In this document: positions 298-40,759 of the stretch, piece by piece | Position numbering within the stretch: position 1 is the first letter of the stretch | Layout: the number at the start of each line of letters is the position of its first letter | From: Oscillospiraceae bacterium | GTDB taxonomy: Bacteria > Bacillota > Clostridia > Oscillospirales > Oscillospiraceae | Length of the DNA stretch: 59,040 nucleotides | Direction: 5' to 3' | Assembly: GCA_009781515.1 (NCBI GenBank) | Contig: WQXY01000013.1 | Span: 1-59,040, forward strand | Made by a program: the position numbers and the translations under genes | The notes under the pieces: generated by a model | Told to the model about the DNA's origin: nothing | What the model saw: only the letters and a program-made list of their open reading frames with translations | Databases searched by the model: none

Positions 298-372
298 TGG
301 AGGCGACACCCAGATTCGAACTGGGGAGTGATGGTTTTGCAAACCACTGCCTTACCACTTGGCTATGTCGCC
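298..372 (-). tRNA. tRNA-Cys (GCA)
   Basis: The minus strand folds as a cloverleaf. The acceptor GGCGACA pairs with TGTCGCC, the anticodon stem GTGGT/ACCAT holds loop TTGCAAA (anticodon GCA), and the TTCGAAT T-loop is present. The discriminator base is U73, as expected for Cys. CCA is encoded at 298-300. It is the last gene of the five-tRNA operon and is separated from tRNA-Gly by a hairpin with its own T-run (378-400), so it may be made at a lower level than the others. Confidence 0.95.
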
Positions 373-377
373 GTATT

Positions 378-420
378 AAAAAACGCCTGTGGCGTTTTTT
401 GCCGCCTTTCGTGAGGCGGC
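378..420. terminator. Back-to-back hairpins between tRNA-Gly and tRNA-Cys
   Basis: Hairpin A (378-387 with 391-400) has a 10-bp palindromic stem starting with six A and ending with six T, so it has terminator form in both directions. Hairpin B (401-407 with 414-420) has a GCCGCCT/AGGCGGC stem, followed on the plus strand by five T. On the minus strand, hairpin A would act as an intrinsic terminator inside the tRNA operon. Hairpin B looks like a plus-strand terminator that would block antisense transcription. Confidence 0.6.
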
Positions 421-424
421 TTTT

Positions 425-500
425 TGGAGCGGGTGACGAGGCTCGAACTCGCTACCTCCACCTTGGCAAGGTGGCGCTCTACCAGATGAGCTACACCCGC
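425..500 (-). tRNA. tRNA-Gly (GCC)
   Basis: The acceptor GCGGGTG pairs with CACCCGC. The anticodon stem CCACC/GGTGG closes loop TTGCCAA, giving anticodon GCC. The discriminator is U and CCA is encoded at 425-427. It is the fourth gene in the minus-strand operon. Confidence 0.95.
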
Positions 501-517
501 AAATCTTGCGGTTTTTT
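497..517 (+). terminator. Plus-strand terminator-like hairpin overlapping the tRNA-Gly 5' end
   Basis: CCGCAA (497-502) pairs with TTGCGG (506-511) and is followed by six T on the plus strand, antisense to the tRNA operon. The left arm lies inside the 5' end of tRNA-Gly. It may stop antisense transcription or may be coincidental; the stem is short. Confidence 0.4.
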
Positions 518-526
518 GGAAACCTA

Positions 527-602
<76 letters not shown>

Positions 603-613
603 ATTAATTTTAT

Positions 614-690
614 TGGCGACCCAGAACGGACTCGAACCGTCGGCCTCCAGCGTGACAGGCTGGCGTTCTAACCAACTGAACTACTGGGCC
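614..690 (-). tRNA. tRNA-Asp (GTC)
   Basis: The acceptor GGCCCAG pairs with CTGGGTC. The anticodon stem CCAGC/GCTGG closes loop CTGTCAC, giving anticodon GTC. The discriminator is G73, the Asp identity base, and CCA is encoded at 614-616. Confidence 0.95.
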
Positions 691-715
691 ATATAGTGGT
701 GCAACAGTGCACCTT

Positions 716-791
716 TGGTGGGAACTACTGGGCTTGAACCAGTGACCCCATGCTTGTAAGGCATGTGCTCTCCCAGCTGAGCTAAGCTCCC
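716..791 (-). tRNA. tRNA-Val (TAC)
   Basis: The acceptor GGGAGCT pairs with AGTTCCC. The anticodon stem CATGC/GCATG closes loop CTTACAA, giving anticodon TAC. The discriminator is A73 and CCA is encoded at 716-718. It is the first gene of the operon, about 17 bases after the -10 box. Confidence 0.95.
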
Positions 792-5445: not shown

Positions 5446-5519
5446 CGGGGTGTGGCGAAGTTTGGTATCGCGCACGGTTCGGGACCGTGAGGCCGTGGGT
5501 TCAAGTCCCACCACTCCGA
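5446..5519 (+). tRNA. tRNA-Pro (CGG)
   Basis: The acceptor CGGGGTG pairs with CACTCCG. The anticodon stem CACGG/CCGTG closes loop TTCGGGA, giving anticodon CGG. The discriminator is A73. Unlike the five tRNAs at the left end, CCA is not encoded (the next bases are CAG), so the end must be added by nucleotidyltransferase. It is a single-gene unit with its own promoter and terminator. Confidence 0.93.
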
Positions 5520-19717: not shown

Positions 19718-19799
19718 GTCGGTTGCATGGAATTTCGGCAGTGACCGATATTACTAAGTAAATGATACTTTTTTCACATTGAGGAGGATAATAAGTATA

Positions 19800-20999
19800 A
19801 TGGGTAAGCAAAAGTTTGAAAGAACGAAACCACACGTAAACATTGGCACAATCGGTCACGTTGACCACGGAAAAACAACTCTAACCGCTGCTATCACAAA
19901 GTTTTTGAGCTTGACAGGCGGAGCAAAGTTCGAGTCTTATGACGCAATCGACAAAGCTCCCGAAGAGCGTGAACGTGGTATTACAATCAATACCGCACAC
20001 GTTGAGTATGAGACAGACGCACGTCACTACGCACATGTTGACTGTCCCGGACACGCCGACTACATCAAAAACATGATTACGGGTGCCGCACAAATGGACG
20101 GCTCAATACTCGTTATTTCAGCAGCAGACGGTCCAATGGCACAAACACGCGAGCATATTCTGCTTGCACGTCAAGTTGGTGTTCCTGCAATCGTTGTATT
20201 CCTCAACAAAGCAGACCAAGTCGACGACCCCGAGCTTCTTGAAATCGTTGAAATGGAAGTCCGCGAGCTTCTCTCGAAGTATGAATTCCCGGGCGACGAC
20301 ATTCCGATTATCACAGGAAGCGGACGTAACGCACTCGAGTCAGCATCAACAGACCCGACATCCGCCGAATATGAGTGCATCAAAGCTCTCATGGACGCAG
20401 TTGACTCCTACATTCCGACTCCCGAGCGTAAAGCAGACCTCCCGTTCCTTATGCCTGTTGAAGACACAATGACAATCACAGGTCGCGGAACAGTTGCAAC
20501 AGGTCGTGTTGAGCGTGGTAAGATAAACAAGAACGACAAAGTTGAAATCGTCGGTCTTATGGACGAACCCCGCGAAACAACAATCACAGACATCGAAATG
20601 TTCCGTAAACTTCTTGACTATGCAGAAGCCGGCGACAACATCGGTGCACTGCTTCGTGGTGTTTCAAGAGATGAAATCCAAAGAGGACAAGTTCTTGCGA
20701 AGCCCGGAAGCATTAAGCCGCTCACAAAGTTTAAGGGTCAAGTTTACGTTCTCTCGAAGGACGAAGGCGGACGCCACACACCGTTCTTTAACAACTACCG
20801 CCCGCAGTTCTACTTCCGTACAACAGACGTCACAGGCGTTATCACACTTCCGGCAGGTGTCGAGATGTGTATGCCCGGCGACAACGTTGAGATTGATGTT
20901 GAACTCATCACCCCAATCGCAATAGAAAACGGACTTCGTTTTGCTATCCGCGAGGGTGGACGCACAGTTGGTTCAGGTGTTGTAATCGCCTGTTCATAA
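19800..20999 (+). CDS. tuf: Elongation factor Tu
   Basis: It delivers aminoacyl-tRNA to the ribosome as a GTP complex. G1 is [10 protein letters not shown]3 DCPGHADY and the NKADQ guanine motif is at G4. The start at 19800 ([12 protein letters not shown]) gives 399 residues, the usual size, with GAGGAGG 12 bases upstream; an earlier in-frame ATG at 19779 lacks homology. Its own promoter and a strong terminator make it a largely independent unit. The C-terminus ends VVIACS. Confidence 0.97.
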
Positions 21000-21011
21000 C
21001 AAAATTAAGTA

Positions 21012-21047
21012 AAATATCCTCTCTTTTTCAGAGAGGATATTTTTTTT
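21012..21047 (+). terminator. Terminator of tuf
   Basis: A stem of at least 10 bp (21014-21023 with 31-40) is followed by seven T. It lies 13 bases after the tuf stop. Confidence 0.93.
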
Positions 21048-21053
21048 GTTATT

Positions 21054-21156
21054 TATAGACCATAAGTAGATTGTTTTTTTTGATTTTTCGCGTACCAAGG
21101 GCGACAAGACCCGTGTTAGCGAAAAATTCTAAAAAAATTGTCTACTTATGGTTATA
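21054..21156 (+). repeat. Conserved hairpin element, copy 1
   Basis: A long imperfect inverted repeat. A perfect 12-bp foot (21059-21070 with 21141-21152) extends by TATA/TATA beyond a bulged G at 21058. A T/A-rich middle stem follows (21074-21080 with 21131-21137), then an inner stem TTTTTCGC/GCGAAAAA (21084-21091 with 21119-21126), and a 27-base top (21092-21118) in which GGG can pair with CCC. The centre, 21082-21129, is identical over 48 bases to copy 2 at 38203-38302, which lies in reverse orientation. The arms differ between copies but stay complementary. It sits between the tuf terminator and the cdaR promoter. I recognise no family. Confidence 0.85.
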
Positions 21157-21253: not shown

Positions 21254-21332
21254 GAACACAGAGGAAACAAAATTTATAGTTAATTTGACAAATTTTAAGT
21301 AAAAATCGTAACCTATTGTGGAGGAACTATCG

Positions 21333-22424
21333 TTGTCGAGCAGAATATTCCAAAGCGTAATCGTTCAAATGAAAGACGCAACAGACCGTATAGTTGGCGT
21401 TATCGACCCTGACGGAATTGTAATTGCAAGCTCTGATTTGTCACAAATCGGAACAAATATCGGCAGTGTTGCACAGCTCCTTGAGGAAACCGACACGCTT
21501 ACCGTTTCAAGTGCAGGCAAGACATACAAGGCTCTCAGTCAAGAGTCCACCGACGGTTATACCGTTTTTACGGCAGGCGAGGACGAACTGGCTAAAACGA
21601 TTTGCATTATGGCATCCATTGCAATCAGCGAAGCCGGAATATATTTTGAAGAAAACCACGACAAACGCTCATTTGTTAAGACAATAATATCAGAGAATAT
21701 ACTACCCGGCGACATATTCGTCAGAGCCAAAGAACTCGGCTTTTCACAAGATGTTGCAAGAGGAGTGCTTGTAATCAGACTCGCTAATGCATCAAACACT
21801 TCGGCGATTGACACGGTTTCCGACGTTTTTCCCGACAAGCAAAATGACTTTGTTATTAGTGTAAATGACACGGATATAGTCGTCATCAAAGAACTTCCCG
21901 CAAAAAATGAAACCAAATATCTCGTCGGTCTCGCGGAGACCATACATGAAAAACTAAAGACTGAGCTTAGCTTTACTTCGGTAATCGGCGTCGGAACACC
22001 TGCGCGTCATTTGCGCGAGCTTGCCGAGCGCTATAAAGAAGCTCTCATTGCGATAGACATCGGCAGAGTATTTGAAACAGGCAAGTCTGTTATCTGCTAT
22101 GAAAACCTCGGCATCAGCAGACTTATATATCAGCTTCCGACAACACTTTGTGAGATATTTCTCGCAGAGGTTTTTAAGCGAAACCCAATTGAGTCTCTCG
22201 ACGCAGAAACACTCTTTACTATCTATAAGTTTTTTGAAAACAATCTTAATGTATCTGAAACATCGAGGAAGCTCTTTGTTCACAGAAATACACTCGTATA
22301 CAGGCTTGAGAAAATAAGAAAAATAACAGGGCTTGATTTGCGTGTGTTTGACCATGCTATCATTTTTAAGGTAGCGCTTATGGTCAGAATGTACTTAGTA
22401 TCACAGGAGTCTAAGTCTTTATGA
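21333..22424 (+). CDS. CdaR/PucR-family transcriptional regulator
   Basis: A 363-residue regulator. The N-terminus (IVGVIDPDGIVIASSDLSQIG) resembles the sugar-diacid recognition domain. A middle GGDEF-like region follows, and the C-terminus is the PucR-type helix-turn-helix NLNVSETSRKLFVHRNTLVYRLEKI. I chose the TTG at 21333, which has GGAGG 8 bases upstream; a GTG at 21318 would place that site inside the gene. The stop overlaps ftsE as ATGA. This pairing with ftsE recurs in Clostridia; a link to division is inferred from that, and the ligand is unknown. Confidence 0.88.
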   Translation: MSSRIFQSVIVQMKDATDRIVGVIDPDGIVIASSDLSQIGTNIGSVAQLLEETDTLTVSSAGKTYKALSQESTDGYTVFTAGEDELAKTICIMASIAISEAGIYFEENHDKRSFVKTIISENILPGDIFVRAKELGFSQDVARGVLVIRLANASNTSAIDTVSDVFPDKQNDFVISVNDTDIVVIKELPAKNETKYLVGLAETIHEKLKTELSFTSVIGVGTPARHLRELAERYKEALIAIDIGRVFETGKSVICYENLGISRLIYQLPTTLCEIFLAEVFKRNPIESLDAETLFTIYKFFENNLNVSETSRKLFVHRNTLVYRLEKIRKITGLDLRVFDHAIIFKVALMVRMYLVSQESKSL

Positions 22425-35115: not shown

Positions 35116-35811
35116 ATGGGTGATAATAACATTAAGCAGCTTCAAGAAAAGCTGAATTACAAGTTCAAAAAGACAAAACTGCTTGAATTGGCACTGACTC
35201 ACAGTTCATATGCAAATGACAATAAAATGAGCACTCATGTCAGCAATCAGCGTCTTGAATTTCTCGGGGACTCCGTGCTCGGAATGATAGTGGCTCAGCT
35301 TATATACAAAAACAAACCGGAGCTGACAGAGGGCAAAATGTCGAAGCTTCGCGCAGACCTTGTTTGCGAGAAAACACTTGCCGGATTTGCCCGCGGGTTT
35401 GACCTTGGTTCGTACTTACTGCTATCATTCGGGGAGTCAAAAAACGGCGGCAGGGAGCGTCCGTCAATATTAGCTGACGCATTTGAGGCAGTTATTGCAG
35501 CGATTTATTTAGATGGCGGCTTAAAGCCGGCAATGAAGTTTGTTAAGGGTATATTTTTACCGTATATAAAAAACCCCATAATTCATGACTCCGACTATAA
35601 GACCGTTTTTCAAGAGTTTATACAGCCCAAAACAGAGCTATCATATACATATGAAACCGTAGCAGAGGAAGGTCCAAATCACAACAAGCTCTTTACGGTT
35701 GAGCTGAGAGTAAACGGCGAAACAAAAGGTACAGGAACAGGAAAAAGTAAAAAAATAGCTGAGCAGGCCGCTGCAAAAGAAGCTTTATTGAATTTGAAGG
35801 GAGACACATAA
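35116..35811 (+). CDS. rnc: Ribonuclease III
   Basis: It cuts double-stranded RNA, including rRNA precursors. The 231 residues have the catalytic signature QRLEFLGDSVLGM, the second acidic cluster LADAFEAVIAAIYLD, and a C-terminal double-stranded RNA binding domain (PKTELSYTYETVAEEGPNHNK onward). AAGAGGA lies upstream. In most Firmicutes smc follows; here a GH94 gene starts on the rnc stop codon (TAATG). Confidence 0.97.
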   Translation: MGDNNIKQLQEKLNYKFKKTKLLELALTHSSYANDNKMSTHVSNQRLEFLGDSVLGMIVAQLIYKNKPELTEGKMSKLRADLVCEKTLAGFARGFDLGSYLLLSFGESKNGGRERPSILADAFEAVIAAIYLDGGLKPAMKFVKGIFLPYIKNPIIHDSDYKTVFQEFIQPKTELSYTYETVAEEGPNHNKLFTVELRVNGETKGTGTGKSKKIAEQAAAKEALLNLKGDT

Positions 35812-38198
35812 TGCAATACGGATACTTTGACGAAAAAAACAGGGAGTATGTTATTACAAATCCCGCAACCCCGTCCGCTTGGGCAAACTATCTCGGTTCC
35901 CCCGAATACGGCGCAATCATCTCAAACAACGCAGGCGGTTACAGTTTTGTAAAATCAGGTGCAAAAGGAAGACTCACACGTTACCGCTTTAATTCTGTCA
36001 CGGCAGATCAACCCGGCAGATATATTTATATTCGCGACTTAAACGACGGCGATTTCTGGTCGGCATCATGGATGCCCGTCGGCAAGCCTCTTGATGTATA
36101 CGACTCCGAATGCCGCCATGGTACTGCATATACAACAATTACATCGGGATATAAAAACATAAAGACTGAAACACTCTTTTATGTGCCTCACAACGCTACA
36201 TATGAGGTTTGGCGTTTTAAGGTCACAAACAATGACTCAAAGCCCCGCAAGCTTGCTGTTACGGGGTTTGTTGAGTTTACAAATGACCCGCACTACGAGC
36301 AGGACCAAGTAAATCTTCAATACACACTGCTCATCAGCCGTACATATTTTAATAATGACAATCATATTCTTCAACGTTATAACGAAAACCACAAGGACCC
36401 GAGAAAAGACCGTTTCTTCGGTGTTTCGGGTGCCAAGGTCAGTGCATATTGCGGCGACAGAGACAAGTTTGTCGGAAATTACCGCAGCTATGCAAATCCG
36501 GCAGGTATTTCAGACGGTCTGAAAAACGACTTAAACTATTGCGGCAACTCATGTGGTGCTTTGCAAAGTGATATAGAGCTTGCTCCCGGTGAAACAAAAG
36601 AGCTTATTTATCTTATGGGTAATAAGGCAAGCGACGAAGCCGACAAGCTGATTAATGAGTATAAAAATGCAAGTAAGGTTGAAGCCGACCTTAAGGAGCT
36701 TAAGGCATACTGGCATGGTATGCTCGATAACCTGCAGGTAAAAACACCCGACGATAAGTTTAATAATATGCTTAATGTCTGGAATGCTTACCAGTGCTTT
36801 ATTACATTCATTTGGTCACGTGCCGCATCGTTCCAATATTGCGGACTTCGTAACGGATTTGGCTATCGTGACACGGTTCAGGATATTCAAGGCATAATCC
36901 ACTTATCACCCCAAATGGCTCGCAGTCAAATCGAATTTATGCTCTCGGCGCAGGTTTCAAACGGTGCGGGCTTGCCGCTTGTTAAGTATGACCACAACGC
37001 AGGCTTTGAGGACACGCCCGATGATGACTCATATGTCAAAGAAACAGACCACCCGAGCTATCGTGCAGACGACGCACTGTGGCTATTCCCGACAATTAAA
37101 AAGTACATTGACGAAACAGGTGAGCTTGATTTCCTCGACTTCGAAATTGTATTTGCAGATGTCAACGAGAAAGCTTCCGTCTATGAGCATCTCAAGCGTG
37201 CGATTAAATTCTCAATGGATAACCTCGGACCGCACAAAATACCCGCAGGCTTACATGCCGACTGGAATGACTGCCTGCGTCTTGGCAAAATGGGTGAGTC
37301 CACATTTGTTTTGTTCCAGTTTATCTATGCAATGCGTGTCTTGAGGGATTACGCTGTGCTTAAAAATGATGCCGAATATATTTCATGGCTTGATAAAACT
37401 CTCGCCGAAATAACTAAAATAACAGACGATATCTGTTGGAATGAAGACCGCTGGATACGCGGCTTTAAGGAAACAGGCGAAGTCATCGGCAGAAAAGGCG
37501 ACCCCGAGGCTTCAATGTGGCTCAATCCGCAGTCATGGGGTGTCATTTCGGGTCACTCCGGTGCTGAGCGCGGTAAGCTGACAATGGACAGTGTATACCG
37601 TGAGCTTAATACACCTTACGGCACAATGCTTATGTATCCCGCATATAAGGACCACGCATTTGACGGTGCTCTTGCACTTGTCTTTAACAGAGGCGTTAAA
37701 GAAAATGCAGGCATATTCTGTCACTCTCAAGGTTGGGCAATTCTTGCCGAAGCACTTCTCGGACGTGGTGAGAGAGCTTATGAATATCTTCGCGAAATGT
37801 GCCCTGCATACATGAATGAAGATGCAGACCGCAGGGTTTTAGAACCCTATGCGCACGCACAGTCTATCGAAGCCAAGGACAGCCCGTTCCAAGGGCGTGC
37901 CCATATTCATTGGCTTACAGGTGCCGCCACAACCGTTATGGTTGCAATGGTTGAGGGTATACTCGGTCTCAAGCCCGCTCCCGATGGCATAGAGATTAAC
38001 CCGTCAATTTCATCGGATTGGAAAAACTGGAGCATGGTTAAGAAATTCCGCGGCAAAACGCTGAATATAACCATAAATAATCCCTCCGGTAGCCAAAACG
38101 GAGTAAAGTCGGTCACAGTCAACGGACAAAAGCTTGACGGAACATTTATCCCCGTATCTGTACTGTCGCAGGAAAATGATATAACAATAGAAATGTAG
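35811..38198 (+). CDS. GH94 phosphorylase, cellobionate/chitobiose phosphorylase-like branch
   Basis: A 795-residue inverting disaccharide phosphorylase that would split a beta-linked disaccharide with phosphate to give a sugar 1-phosphate. GH94 domains run full length; the catalytic acid is Asp487 in HADWNDCLRLG. Segments such as GRYIYIRDLNDGDFWSASW, SECRHGTAYTTI and WLTGAATTVMVA look closer to the cellobionic-acid and chitobiose phosphorylase branch than to classical cellobiose phosphorylase, which the next gene represents. The acceptor is therefore uncertain. AAGGGAG lies in the end of rnc and the start overlaps the rnc stop, tying its expression to the housekeeping operon. The hairpin element copy 2 follows it. 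Confidence 0.88.
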   Translation: MQYGYFDEKNREYVITNPATPSAWANYLGSPEYGAIISNNAGGYSFVKSGAKGRLTRYRFNSVTADQPGRYIYIRDLNDGDFWSASWMPVGKPLDVYDSECRHGTAYTTITSGYKNIKTETLFYVPHNATYEVWRFKVTNNDSKPRKLAVTGFVEFTNDPHYEQDQVNLQYTLLISRTYFNNDNHILQRYNENHKDPRKDRFFGVSGAKVSAYCGDRDKFVGNYRSYANPAGISDGLKNDLNYCGNSCGALQSDIELAPGETKELIYLMGNKASDEADKLINEYKNASKVEADLKELKAYWHGMLDNLQVKTPDDKFNNMLNVWNAYQCFITFIWSRAASFQYCGLRNGFGYRDTVQDIQGIIHLSPQMARSQIEFMLSAQVSNGAGLPLVKYDHNAGFEDTPDDDSYVKETDHPSYRADDALWLFPTIKKYIDETGELDFLDFEIVFADVNEKASVYEHLKRAIKFSMDNLGPHKIPAGLHADWNDCLRLGKMGESTFVLFQFIYAMRVLRDYAVLKNDAEYISWLDKTLAEITKITDDICWNEDRWIRGFKETGEVIGRKGDPEASMWLNPQSWGVISGHSGAERGKLTMDSVYRELNTPYGTMLMYPAYKDHAFDGALALVFNRGVKENAGIFCHSQGWAILAEALLGRGERAYEYLREMCPAYMNEDADRRVLEPYAHAQSIEAKDSPFQGRAHIHWLTGAATTVMVAMVEGILGLKPAPDGIEINPSISSDWKNWSMVKKFRGKTLNITINNPSGSQNGVKSVTVNGQKLDGTFIPVSVLSQENDITIEM

Positions 38199-38202
38199 AA
38201 AT

Positions 38203-38302
38203 TTACATTAAGTAGGCAATTTTCTACGAATTTTTCGCTAACACGGGTCTTGTCGCCCTTGGTACGCGAAAAATCCGTAGCAAACAACCTACTTAATGCT
38301 AA
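38203..38302 (-). repeat. Conserved hairpin element, copy 2
   Basis: It begins 5 bases after the first GH94 stop. An 11-bp perfect foot (38206-38216 with 38288-38298) extends by TTA/TAA past a bulge at 38299. A middle and inner stem (38224-38238 with 38266-38280, 15 bp with one G-U) leads to the top. Positions 38228-38275 are the exact reverse complement of 21082-21129 in copy 1. In the foot, three base pairs differ from copy 1 and all are compensated. Read on the minus strand, it matches copy 1 in the plus sense. Confidence 0.85.
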
Positions 38303-38335
38303 CAAAAAATTAGAATGAAAGGATTATTTTCAATT

Positions 38336-40759
38336 ATGAAATTCGGGTTCTTTGATGATAAAAAACGTGAATATGTTATAGAAACACCTTATACACCGCT
38401 GCCCTGGATTAACTACCTCGGCTCACAGGAGTTTTTCGGTCTTGTTTCCAACACCGGCGGAGGCTACTGCTTTTTTCGTGATGCAAAGCTTCGCCGCCTG
38501 ACCCGCTACAGATATAACAACGTACCGCGTGATAACGGCGGCAGAATGTTTTATATCAATGACGGCGGGGTCATTTGGAGTCCGACCTATCTTCCGGTAA
38601 AAACCAAGCTTGACTCTTACCGCTGCCGACACGGCATGGGTTATACAATCTTTGAGGCCGAGCTGAATAAACTGTCTGCAGAGCTTACATTCTTTGTTCC
38701 GCTAAACGAAAATCTTGAAATACACCGTCTTGTTTTGACAAATAACTCCGATACAACAAAGAATATCAGCACAACCTCTGCGATTGAGTTTTGCCTTTGG
38801 AATGCGGTTGATGACAACACCAACTTCCAACGAAACTACAGCATTGGGGAAGTGGAAGTTGAAGACAAGGTCATTTACCATAAAACCGAGTACCGTGAGC
38901 GTCGTAATCATTATGCGTATTATTCCGTAAATACGAAAACCGACGGATTTGACACAGACCTTGACAGCTTCCTCGGTAAGTTCAACAGCTATGATACTCC
39001 GCGTGCTGTCCTTGAAAACAAAAGCGGAAATACAATCGCACACGGCTGGTCGCCAATGGGAAGTCACCGCCTTGCAGCGCAGCTTGAACCCGGTGAGTCT
39101 GTGGAATACATCTTCCTGCTCGGATATACAGAACTTCCTGATGCAGAAAAATGGGACGGACCTGCCGCAAACGGCATAATAAACAAAAAACCTGCGAAGG
39201 AAAAAATTGCAAAGTTCAGCTGCTCTAAAACAGTTGCAGATGAGCTATCTAAGCTGTCTGTGTACTGGACAGATTTGCTCGGCAAGTATCAGGTAGCGTC
39301 GGGTGATGAAAAGCTCGACCGTATGGTCAACATTTGGAACCAGTATCAGTGCATGACAACCTTTAACATGAGCCGCAGTGCAAGCTACTACGAAAGCGGC
39401 ACAGGCAGGGGAATGGGCTTTCGTGACTCCTGTCAAGACCTGCTCGGATTTGTGCACATGGTTCCCGAACGTGCACGTGAGCGTATTCTTGACATTGCTG
39501 CCATTCAGTTTGAAGACGGCGCTGCATATCACCAGTATCAGCCGCTTACAAAACGCGGTAATGCCGAGATAGGCATGGGCTTTAATGATGACCCGCTATG
39601 GCTGATTGCCTGTGTTTATGCGTATATATCGGAAACAGGCGATTTCTCCATACTTGATGAGCCTGTGCAGTTTGATAACAAAGAGGGTTCTGAAAAGCCA
39701 CTCTTTGAGCATATCCGCGCAAGCTTTAACTATACCTTAAATAACCTCGGCCCGCACAATCTGCCGCTTATAGGCAGAGCTGACTGGAACGACTGCCTTA
39801 ACCTCAACTGCTTCTCAAGAGAACCGGGCGAGAGCTTCCAAACCTGTGCAAACATTGAAAGCGATGCCGAAAGTGTGTTTATAGGCGGTATGTTTGTGCT
39901 CTACGGCAATCAGTTTGCAGAGCTTTGCGAAAAGACAGGCAAAAGTGACGAAGCGGCAAAAGCGCGTCAATCGGTAAAAACCATGTCTGACGCCGTCTTA
40001 AAACACGGTTGGGACGGTGAGTGGTTTGTCCGTGCTTACGACTCAAACGGCGACAGAGTTGGAAGCAAGCAGTGCAACGACGGCAAAATCTTCATTGAAC
40101 CGCAAGGTATGTGCGTAATGGCAGGTATTGGTGTTGAAACAGGTGAAGCAGCAAAGGCTCTTAAAAGCACGAAAGAGCATCTTACATTTGAGTATGGTAC
40201 ATGCCTGCTTTATCCGACATACAAGGAGTACCACTTAAACCTCGGCGAGGTCAGCAGTTATCCTCCCGGATATAAAGAAAACGGTGCCGTATTCTGCCAC
40301 AACAACCCGTGGGTCAGCATTGCGGAAACCGTTCTCGGCAATGCAGATGAAGCCTTTGAAGTCTACAGACGTATTTGCCCTGCATATCTTGAAGATATAA
40401 GCGACATACACCGCACGGAGCCGTATGTCTACAGTCAAATGATAGCAGGTCAGGAAGCTCCGACACCGGGCGAAGCTAAAAACAGCTGGCTTACAGGCAC
40501 TGCTGCATGGACCTATGCAAATATCAGTCAGTATTTGCTTGGTATACGCCCTGTACTCGGCGGGCTGAGTGTTGCGCCATGTCTGCCCGAGCAGTTTAGT
40601 AATGTTAAAATTAAACGCATTTTCAGAGGGGCACAGTATGATATAACTATCACACGAGCAGCCGAAAAGGGTCTGTGGGTAGACGGTAAAAAAATTGACG
40701 GTAACATTATTCCGATTGCGTCCGCAAATTCTACGGTTACTGTTGAATGTAAAATTTAA
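38336..40759 (+). CDS. Cellobiose phosphorylase (GH94)
   Basis: It should convert cellobiose and phosphate to glucose 1-phosphate and glucose in the cytoplasm, saving ATP. The 807 residues follow classical cellobiose phosphorylases closely: start [15 protein letters not shown], then [57 protein letters not shown], the catalytic Asp486 in [13 protein letters not shown], and [10 protein letters not shown] near the end. I chose 38336 by homology; AAAGGA lies 13 bases upstream. A second ATG at 38315 lacks a site. It follows the hairpin element, and xylulokinase follows after 17 bases. Confidence 0.95.

What the first reader, a model, noticed from the sequence alone, without database searches (positions are those of the whole stretch)
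21054..21156. Hairpin element with an invariant 48-base centre and covarying arms
Two copies (here and, reversed, at 38203-38302) share an identical 48-base centre, while the arms differ but remain complementary. In the 11-bp foot, three pairs change together (C-G to A-T, A-T to T-A, A-T to G-C). The middle stem is T/A-only here and CTAC/GTAG in copy 2. A bulged G near the foot is kept on the same side. Such compensated change is the mark of selection on the folded form. It matches no family I can name. Options: a structured RNA, a protein-bound DNA hairpin such as a REP-like or RAYT-moved repeat, or a miniature mobile element.
Basis: partly seen in the sequence, partly recalled or inferred. 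Interest (0 to 1): 0.88.

Follow-up and report, generated by a model that had tools for sequence, protein, structure and literature searches.

The report
Mobile DNA hairpin with co-varying arms
The two hairpins belong to a family of small jumping DNA elements found in one group of termite-gut bacteria; their stem sequences differ between copies yet mostly stay matched, which suggests that the folded shape of one strand matters to the element, though what the fold does is not known.

Summary
In detail: two ~100-nt hairpins (w1 21054-21156 +; w2 38203-38302 -) share an identical 48-base centre and differ in complementary arms. They are not alone: 8 places in the own genome and 11 of 19 genomes of the genus (termite-gut Oscillospiraceae MAGs) match; 0 of 294 other sampled genomes of the order and 3 of 300 of the family, all own genus. 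Young copies elsewhere in the genus have GT(T/A)AC inverted ends and 8-bp target duplications, and one genome holds an IS66/ISBst12-type insertion sequence with similar ends and an 8-bp duplication. So the family is a MITE, probably moved in trans by such a transposase; this step is untested. The window copies lack recognisable ends and are presumably old members. The cargo is unusual: in 26 copies of one genome with near-identical tips the outer arms differ but pair in 97.5% of cells; G.T mismatches outnumber A.C 237:35, so one strand is the folded one, whatever the direction of neighbouring genes. Template switching between arms can produce co-changes and inversion (one inverted orthologous pair seen), but not the strand bias. 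What the fold does is unknown.

The parts
21054..21156 (+). hairpin copy w1, whole
   Evidence: R1 match G000:C13:21058-21154 +
21082..21129 (+). invariant 48-base centre of w1: upper stem GATTTTTCGC/GCGAAAAATTC and apical part
   Evidence: letter-identical to w2; 43 of these bases recur unchanged in three further copies of the own genome
21058..21081 (+). 5' arm of w1, variable and complementary to 21130-21153
   Evidence: fold
21130..21153 (+). 3' arm of w1
   Evidence: fold
38203..38302 (-). hairpin copy w2, whole; fills most of the 116-nt spacer between two GH94 ORFs
   Evidence: R1 match G000:C13:38203-38300 -
38228..38275 (-). invariant 48-base centre of w2
19779..20999 (+). upstream neighbour of w1: elongation factor Tu
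   Evidence: neighbour only, not part of the element
21318..22424 (+). downstream neighbour of w1: CdaR/PucR-like regulator (HTH_30, GGDEF_2)
   Evidence: neighbour only
35811..38198 (+). upstream neighbour of w2: glycoside hydrolase 94 family protein
   Evidence: neighbour only
38315..40759 (+). downstream neighbour of w2: second glycoside hydrolase 94 family protein (mechanical ORF start; a later ATG at 38336 is possible)
   Evidence: neighbour only

Best explanation
w1 and w2 are old, end-decayed copies of a genus-specific MITE, a non-autonomous DNA transposon of about 133-145 bp in its young form. The young form has GT(T/A)AC inverted ends and makes 8-bp target duplications, and an IS66-family (ISBst12-group) transposase probably acts on these ends in trans. 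Between the ends it carries a long hairpin whose tip is nearly constant within most genomes and differs between genomes, while the outer arms are free to change as long as they pair. Shown here: ends, duplications, empty orthologous sites, a partner IS with similar ends, covariation, and strand-specific tolerance of G.T. Inferred: the transposase acts in trans; the strand-specific fold is selected while the element propagates (as RNA, or as a single DNA strand) and its tip is read by a genome-specific factor; template switching between the arms helps to keep them matched and sometimes flips the hairpin. What the folded strand does is not shown. RNA made by the element seems somewhat likelier to me than single-stranded DNA, because G.U pairs are well tolerated and one genome has a multi-branched long form.
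For: Exact 8-bp duplications next to GT(T/A)AC-like ends in 8 of 156 pattern hits with enough flank (one of them, L088, at an atypical distance), against 2 of 3100 mixed-flank controls; the end pattern was chosen after seeing the ends. Five clear empty sites in G017 at loci filled in G018, direction of change not polarised. L309 in G010: 1895-bp element, 8-bp duplication CTTTTTCA, ends GTAACTATTCAGTTAG and GTAACTGTTCAGTTAC, 514-aa IS66 transposase. IS66-type loci L318 and L319 of G013 have one visible end each, GTTACTAGTCACAC and GTTACAAGTCACAC; a G013 hairpin copy, L140, starts GTTACAAGTCACAG. Published ISBst12-group ISDge4: ends GTGACTACTCAGCA and GTAACTGCTCAGCA with an 8-base repeat (PMC12898284 passages). 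4 of 132 pattern hits lie inside a predicted ORF. Covariation. G.T against A.C 237:35 in 75 of 86 hairpins; by distinct columns 61:30, p 0.0015, with C>T and A>G both raised. The stated strand folds more stably in 157 of 164 pattern hits (6 the reverse, 1 tie, 12 too near an end), although 47 copies lie opposite to and 32 along the flanking genes.
Against: IS66 Pfam matches occur in only 7 of 19 genomes, not in the carriers G000, G006, G009, G014, G016, G017 and G018, and they do occur in G001, G004 and G008, which have no hairpin match. The similarity of ends is partial: 10 of 14 between L309 and a G010 hairpin copy. The hairpin model finds nothing in the 13 IS66 loci, so the hairpin is not part of the IS. 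The window genome's copies show no inverted ends or duplication (0 of 7 pattern hits, one of them spurious), yet the tips in its 6-copy cluster differ by 0.4% against 23.6% in the arms, odd for dead relics. No published case known to me needs a hairpin for IS66-type movement. Private single changes show no clear wobble bias (18 G.T, 13 A.C, 41 other). No transcript data exist here.
Confidence: 0.62

Rival explanations
1. An ordinary MITE whose arms are kept matched only by mutation: template switching copies one arm onto the other, so co-changes arise in one step and the centre can flip. No selection on the fold.
For: Orthologous pair L252/L261 carries the whole hairpin inverted with one co-changed G-C/A-T arm pair; L210 has its core inverted relative to its foot. 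Arm homogenisation and spacer inversion are published outcomes of template switching (PMC8604942 passages; PMC8794818 abstract). Private changes show no clear wobble bias.
Against: It predicts no strand preference, but G.T exceeds A.C 237:35 and the same strand is the more stable in 157 of 164 hits. C>T exceeds G>A and A>G exceeds T>C in paired columns; at unpaired positions C>T does not exceed G>A (63 against 125), though A>G does exceed T>C (206 against 54).
Confidence: 0.2
2. A structured RNA or DNA element with a host function at each site, spread by transposition but kept by selection on every copy.
For: Tips nearly identical while arms differ in the own genome; the orthologous pair L047/L048 shows one aligned difference within the hairpin; G000 and G010 both carry a copy in the pgk-tpiA spacer, and G013 and G018 share one other site.
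Against: Only 2 sites with both flanks shared between distant species in a comparison of 176 pattern hits from 11 genomes (36 more pairs share one flank); 5 clear empty sites between close relatives; 8 of 19 genus members have no match; orientation to genes is not significantly biased (47:32, p 0.11).
Confidence: 0.12
3. A REP/REPIN-type hairpin moved by a RAYT (Y1 HUH transposase).
For: High-copy intergenic hairpins with one preferred strand, like REPs; PMC8266576 passages describe strand-specific recognition of folded single strands. Y1_Tnp matches exist in 8 of 19 genomes, strong in the carrier G010 and weak in G006 and G007.
Against: No Y1_Tnp match in the carriers G000, G009, G013, G014, G015, G016, G017 and G018; the young copies make 8-bp duplications, which Y1 elements do not make (recalled).
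Confidence: 0.02
4. A retro-element copied through RNA by a reverse transcriptase.
For: One strand is the folded one; RVT_1 matches in 7 of 19 genomes, the own genome included.
Against: No RVT_1 match in the carriers G006, G009, G010, G013, G015 and G018; clean 8-bp duplications and inverted ends.
Confidence: 0.02

Closest known systems
MITEs related to IS66-family (ISBst12-group) insertion sequences
   Same: Short, no ORF, inverted ends GT(T/A)AC..TCA, 8-bp duplications, intergenic, many copies; an IS with similar ends lies in the same genus.
   Different: The interior is not a deletion product of the IS copies that I found (no hairpin-model match in 13 IS66 loci) but a strand-specific hairpin with co-varying arms and a constant tip.
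REP / REPIN elements with RAYT
   Same: Sequence populations of strand-specific hairpins, near-uniform within a genome, different between genomes (REP side partly recalled; PMC8266576 passages).
   Different: No Y1 match in several carrier genomes; stem about 40 bp; direct duplications; the constant part is the tip, not a GTAG tag.
Integron attC sites (recalled)
   Same: Folded single strand with variable but complementary arms.
   Different: attC keeps its outer boxes and varies the tip; here the tip is kept and the outer arms vary. Integrase not searched.
ISDge4 (ISBst12 group, PMC12898284 passages)
   Same: End sequences and 8-base duplication resemble those of the L309 insertion sequence.
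   Different: It is an autonomous IS; no hairpin MITE is described in the passages seen.

Membership tests
MITE (non-autonomous DDE transposon) | terminal inverted repeats | tested here: met
   seen by eye in copies of G010, G013, G015, G016 and two of G007 (part of the output was cut); not visible in G000 or G018 copies
MITE (non-autonomous DDE transposon) | target-site duplication of fixed length | tested here: met
   8 bp in 8 of 156 hits (5 G010, 2 G016, 1 G015), control 2 of 3100; none in the window genome (0 of 7)
MITE (non-autonomous DDE transposon) | insertion polymorphism at orthologous sites | tested here: met
   5 clear empty sites among 9 G018 loci queried in G017; gain or loss not polarised
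MITE (non-autonomous DDE transposon) | autonomous partner with the same ends | tested here: inconclusive
   similar, not identical: L309 ends match 10 of 14 to a G010 hairpin copy and 11 of 13 to a G015 copy; 13 of 14 between a G013 copy and the one visible end of G013 locus L319; no match in several carriers
MITE (non-autonomous DDE transposon) | mobilised in trans by that transposase | not testable with these tools
   needs a transposition assay
IS66 family, ISBst12 group (for L309) | IS66 transposase, single ORF, 8-bp duplication, GTAAC ends | tested here: met
   PF03050 142.6 bits, NF033517 259.9 bits over its cut-off of 180; duplication CTTTTTCA
REP/RAYT | Y1 HUH transposase in the genome | tested here: not met
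   no match in G000, G013, G015, G016, G018 among others; present in G010
Rfam RNA family | match at gathering score | tested here: not met
   only tRNAs in the window; in 14 other loci the only match over its gathering score is a tRNA
structured RNA | transcription of the folded strand | not testable with these tools
   no RNA-seq here
structured RNA | covariation beyond shuffles and wobble tolerance on one strand | tested here: met
   also expected of folded single-stranded DNA

The most novel reading that the evidence does not exclude
A bacterial DNA transposon that depends on a structured nucleic acid of its own, most likely an RNA with a genome-specific tip: the tip is read by a co-evolving factor, the arms are an address-free stem that is re-matched by template switching, and the fold is selected in the propagating lineage whatever the direction of neighbouring genes.
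Probability: 0.3. Interest if true: 0.82.

Novelty: new variant of a known kind. Interest (0 to 1): 0.6.

Why it matters
MITEs are usually treated as ends with filler. Here the filler shows strand-specific covariation, a tip that is near-constant within most genomes and a multi-branched long form, so a small transposon seems to need a fold. The family also gives a natural data set, dozens of copies in some genomes, for separating two sources of compensatory change in stems: selection on RNA or single-stranded DNA, and template switching between inverted arms.

Tried and rejected
RAYT/Y1 transposase as mover: no match in eight carrier genomes, though G010 has it. Reverse transcriptase: no match in six carrier genomes. 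Known RNA family: none. Viral origin: three exact-pattern scans of viral contigs found nothing. A transposase between neighbouring copies: the ORFs in the 17 stretches fetched to look between them were read by eye, from their first 60 residues, as ordinary genes; no family search. The exact pattern GTAACTRTTCANC in 8 genomes: 16 hits, 10 of them in G015, where 7 are hairpin copies; the six elsewhere look like chance. The hairpin inside the IS66 loci: none in 13. Gene-orientation effect (cis mRNA hairpin): no significant bias. Cytosine deamination of one strand as the cause of the G.T excess: A>G is raised as well and unpaired C>T is not above G>A. Arms as captured target palindromes: arms are not seen in the empty sites (by eye). 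Private-mutation test: inconclusive. The pair L255/L275 was not resolved and was dropped from the empty-site count. The strand-stability count (153 of 158) had kept only hits whose stated strand folds below -30; one search repeats it without that filter (157 of 164), and that number is used.

The 176 pattern hits contain at least two spurious ones (L039 at 220 and L226 at 2240) and miss the C11 copy of the own genome; the counts rest on them. Searches used earlier, similar pattern sets.

Full report
Observation. The shared centre is 48 identical bases and the arms differ while pairing; the three co-changed foot pairs and the different middle stems are real. Both copies are more stable in the stated strand than in the complement.

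Extent. A search of the own genome gave six places and one match of w1 to its own other strand. A covariance model built from 18 copies gave eight distinct places there, two of them weaker. In the genus 11 of 19 genomes match, with match counts from 1 to 124 that include reverse-strand duplicates. A sample of 295 genomes of the order gave only the own genome, and a broader model (R2) gave 3 of 300 of the family, all of the own genus. Both searches used strict filters and scored 13 or 14 candidates a genome, so weak relatives could be missed.

Anatomy. From 5' to 3': an end GT(T/A)AC..TCA, a short spacer, a foot (T/A)AGC, an outer arm of about 20 bp, an upper stem with a T run facing an A run, a tip, the return arms, the foot GCGG, a spacer, and the end TGA..GTAAC. 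The tip is nearly uniform within most genomes and differs between many: GGGCGACAAGACCC in G000 and G016, mostly GGGCGATGAGACCC in G010, GCGGTGTAGATCCCG in G015, several forms in G013, GTGCTTAGCATTGAGCGAAC in G018. Nine of the 30 G010 pattern hits are a long form with about 80 more bases; in the five that I folded they form up to four further hairpins at the tip. In eight clusters of like tips (four or more copies each, long forms left out) the arms differ 6 to 35% from the consensus and the tip region 0.4 to 7%; in one G013 cluster of 5 copies the two are about equal, in the other seven the arms vary more.

Mobility. 4 of 132 pattern hits lie inside predicted ORFs (a simple ORF caller of mine; 15 more lie at locus edges with one neighbour unseen). 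Between the close relatives G018 and G017 I queried 9 filled G018 loci: 5 sites are clearly empty in G017, one keeps only half of a hairpin, one has a different hairpin-like sequence beside the old 3' arm, one was not resolved and one matched only in pieces. Gain and loss were not told apart. Two further loci are filled in both. Eight hits (5 in G010, 2 in G016, 1 in G015) show exact 8-bp duplications next to GT(T/A)AC-like ends, 8 of 156 against 2 of 3100 in a control that mixes flanks; one, L088, has its 3' end at an atypical distance, and the end pattern was set after looking. This is the signature of a DDE-type transposon.

Partner. IS66-type transposases (PF03050) occur in 7 of 19 genomes. 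L309 in G010 is a complete-looking 1895-bp IS with the ends GTAACTATTCAGTTAG and GTAACTGTTCAGTTAC, an 8-bp duplication and one 514-aa ORF that passes the NCBIfam IS66 cut-off. L312 (G001) has ends GTTACTGTTCACTCCC and GTTACAGTTCACTCCC, without a matching duplication; L318 and L319 (G013) have one visible end each. The hairpin model finds nothing in 13 IS66 loci, so the hairpin is cargo of its own. The published ISBst12-group element ISDge4 has ends GTGACTACTCAGCA and GTAACTGCTCAGCA and an 8-base direct repeat (PMC12898284, passages). The co-occurrence is loose: seven carriers, G000 and G016 among them, lack a match and the non-carriers G001, G004 and G008 have one. MAGs are incomplete and a MITE can outlive its partner, but this is a real weakness.

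Covariation. In 26 copies of the single genome G015, 98.4% of cells pair (shuffled 87.4%; outer helix 97.5%), 17 of 37 pairs have changes on both sides and 101 cells are double changes (shuffled 27.7 +/- 5.2, 0 of 500 reach it); sliding the partner destroys it. These copies were chosen from model matches that share one tip, so badly broken copies are under-represented. In 75 of 86 hairpins (11 dropped for a low arm-alignment score) G.T mismatches number 237 and A.C 35; related copies are counted many times. Counting distinct columns in clusters, changes that leave a wobble (C>T 30, A>G 31) exceed those that break it (G>A 14, T>C 16), 61:30, p 0.0015. The stated strand is the more stable in 157 of 164 hits. 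Since copies lie in both directions relative to genes (47 opposite, 32 along; p 0.11), the preferred strand is a property of the element, not of the host transcript. That argues for selection during propagation, as RNA or single-stranded DNA. Private changes (18 G.T, 13 A.C, 41 other) show no clear bias, as expected if inserted copies drift, but the numbers are small.

Template switching. L252 and L261 are orthologous, and the whole hairpin is inverted between them with one co-changed arm pair; L210 carries its core inverted relative to its foot, the only one among 74 hits that could classify either way. Template switching between inverted repeats is published to homogenise arms and invert the spacer (PMC8604942 passages) and to create and maintain RNA hairpins (PMC8794818 abstract). 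It can explain co-changes without selection; it does not explain the strand bias. I think both act.

Window copies. w1 lies between tuf and a CdaR/PucR-like gene; w2 takes up most of the 116-nt spacer between two GH94 genes. Neither shows inverted ends or a duplication, nor do the other own-genome copies examined. Yet the tips of a six-copy cluster of the own genome are almost identical. Gene conversion, late selection or a faster loss of ends could each explain this; I cannot decide.

Novelty. Searches of the held papers listed REPIN, RAYT and MITE papers but none whose title or abstract start described this family or an IS66-type MITE with co-varying arms; only a few of the listed papers were opened, in passages. 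I file it as a new variant of a known kind.

Noticed in passing
window 21011-21047: A terminator-like inverted repeat with a T run lies just after tuf and directly upstream of w1 (by eye).
   Followed up: no
window 301-791 (-) and 5446-5519 (+): Five tRNA genes in a cluster on the minus strand and one more on the plus strand.
   Followed up: no
L030 and L105 (pgk-tpiA spacer of G000 and G010): Both species carry a hairpin copy in the same orientation in this spacer, short form in one and long form in the other (gene names by eye); shared descent or chance is open.
   Followed up: partly
L069, L081, L092, L093, L094, L103, L104, L105, L111 (G010): Long form of the element: about 80 extra bases at the tip that fold into up to four further hairpins.
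   Followed up: partly
L224 (G015) and L233, L235, L240 (G013): A related arm type (AAGCC..GTGGATGA) occurs in two species with different tips, as if tips had been exchanged between arm lineages.
   Followed up: no
G015 copies, inner stem (for example L211 and L212): A 3 x 3 internal loop reads GGA or GTA, often the same on both sides, which could form sheared G.A pairs around a G.G or U.U pair (motif recalled).
   Followed up: no
L163 (G015): An element with both inverted ends and foot but without the tip, as if the upper hairpin had been deleted.
   Followed up: no
L258 (G018:C65): Tandem repeats of a hairpin-like unit with TTTTTTTGCGTATG motifs.
   Followed up: no
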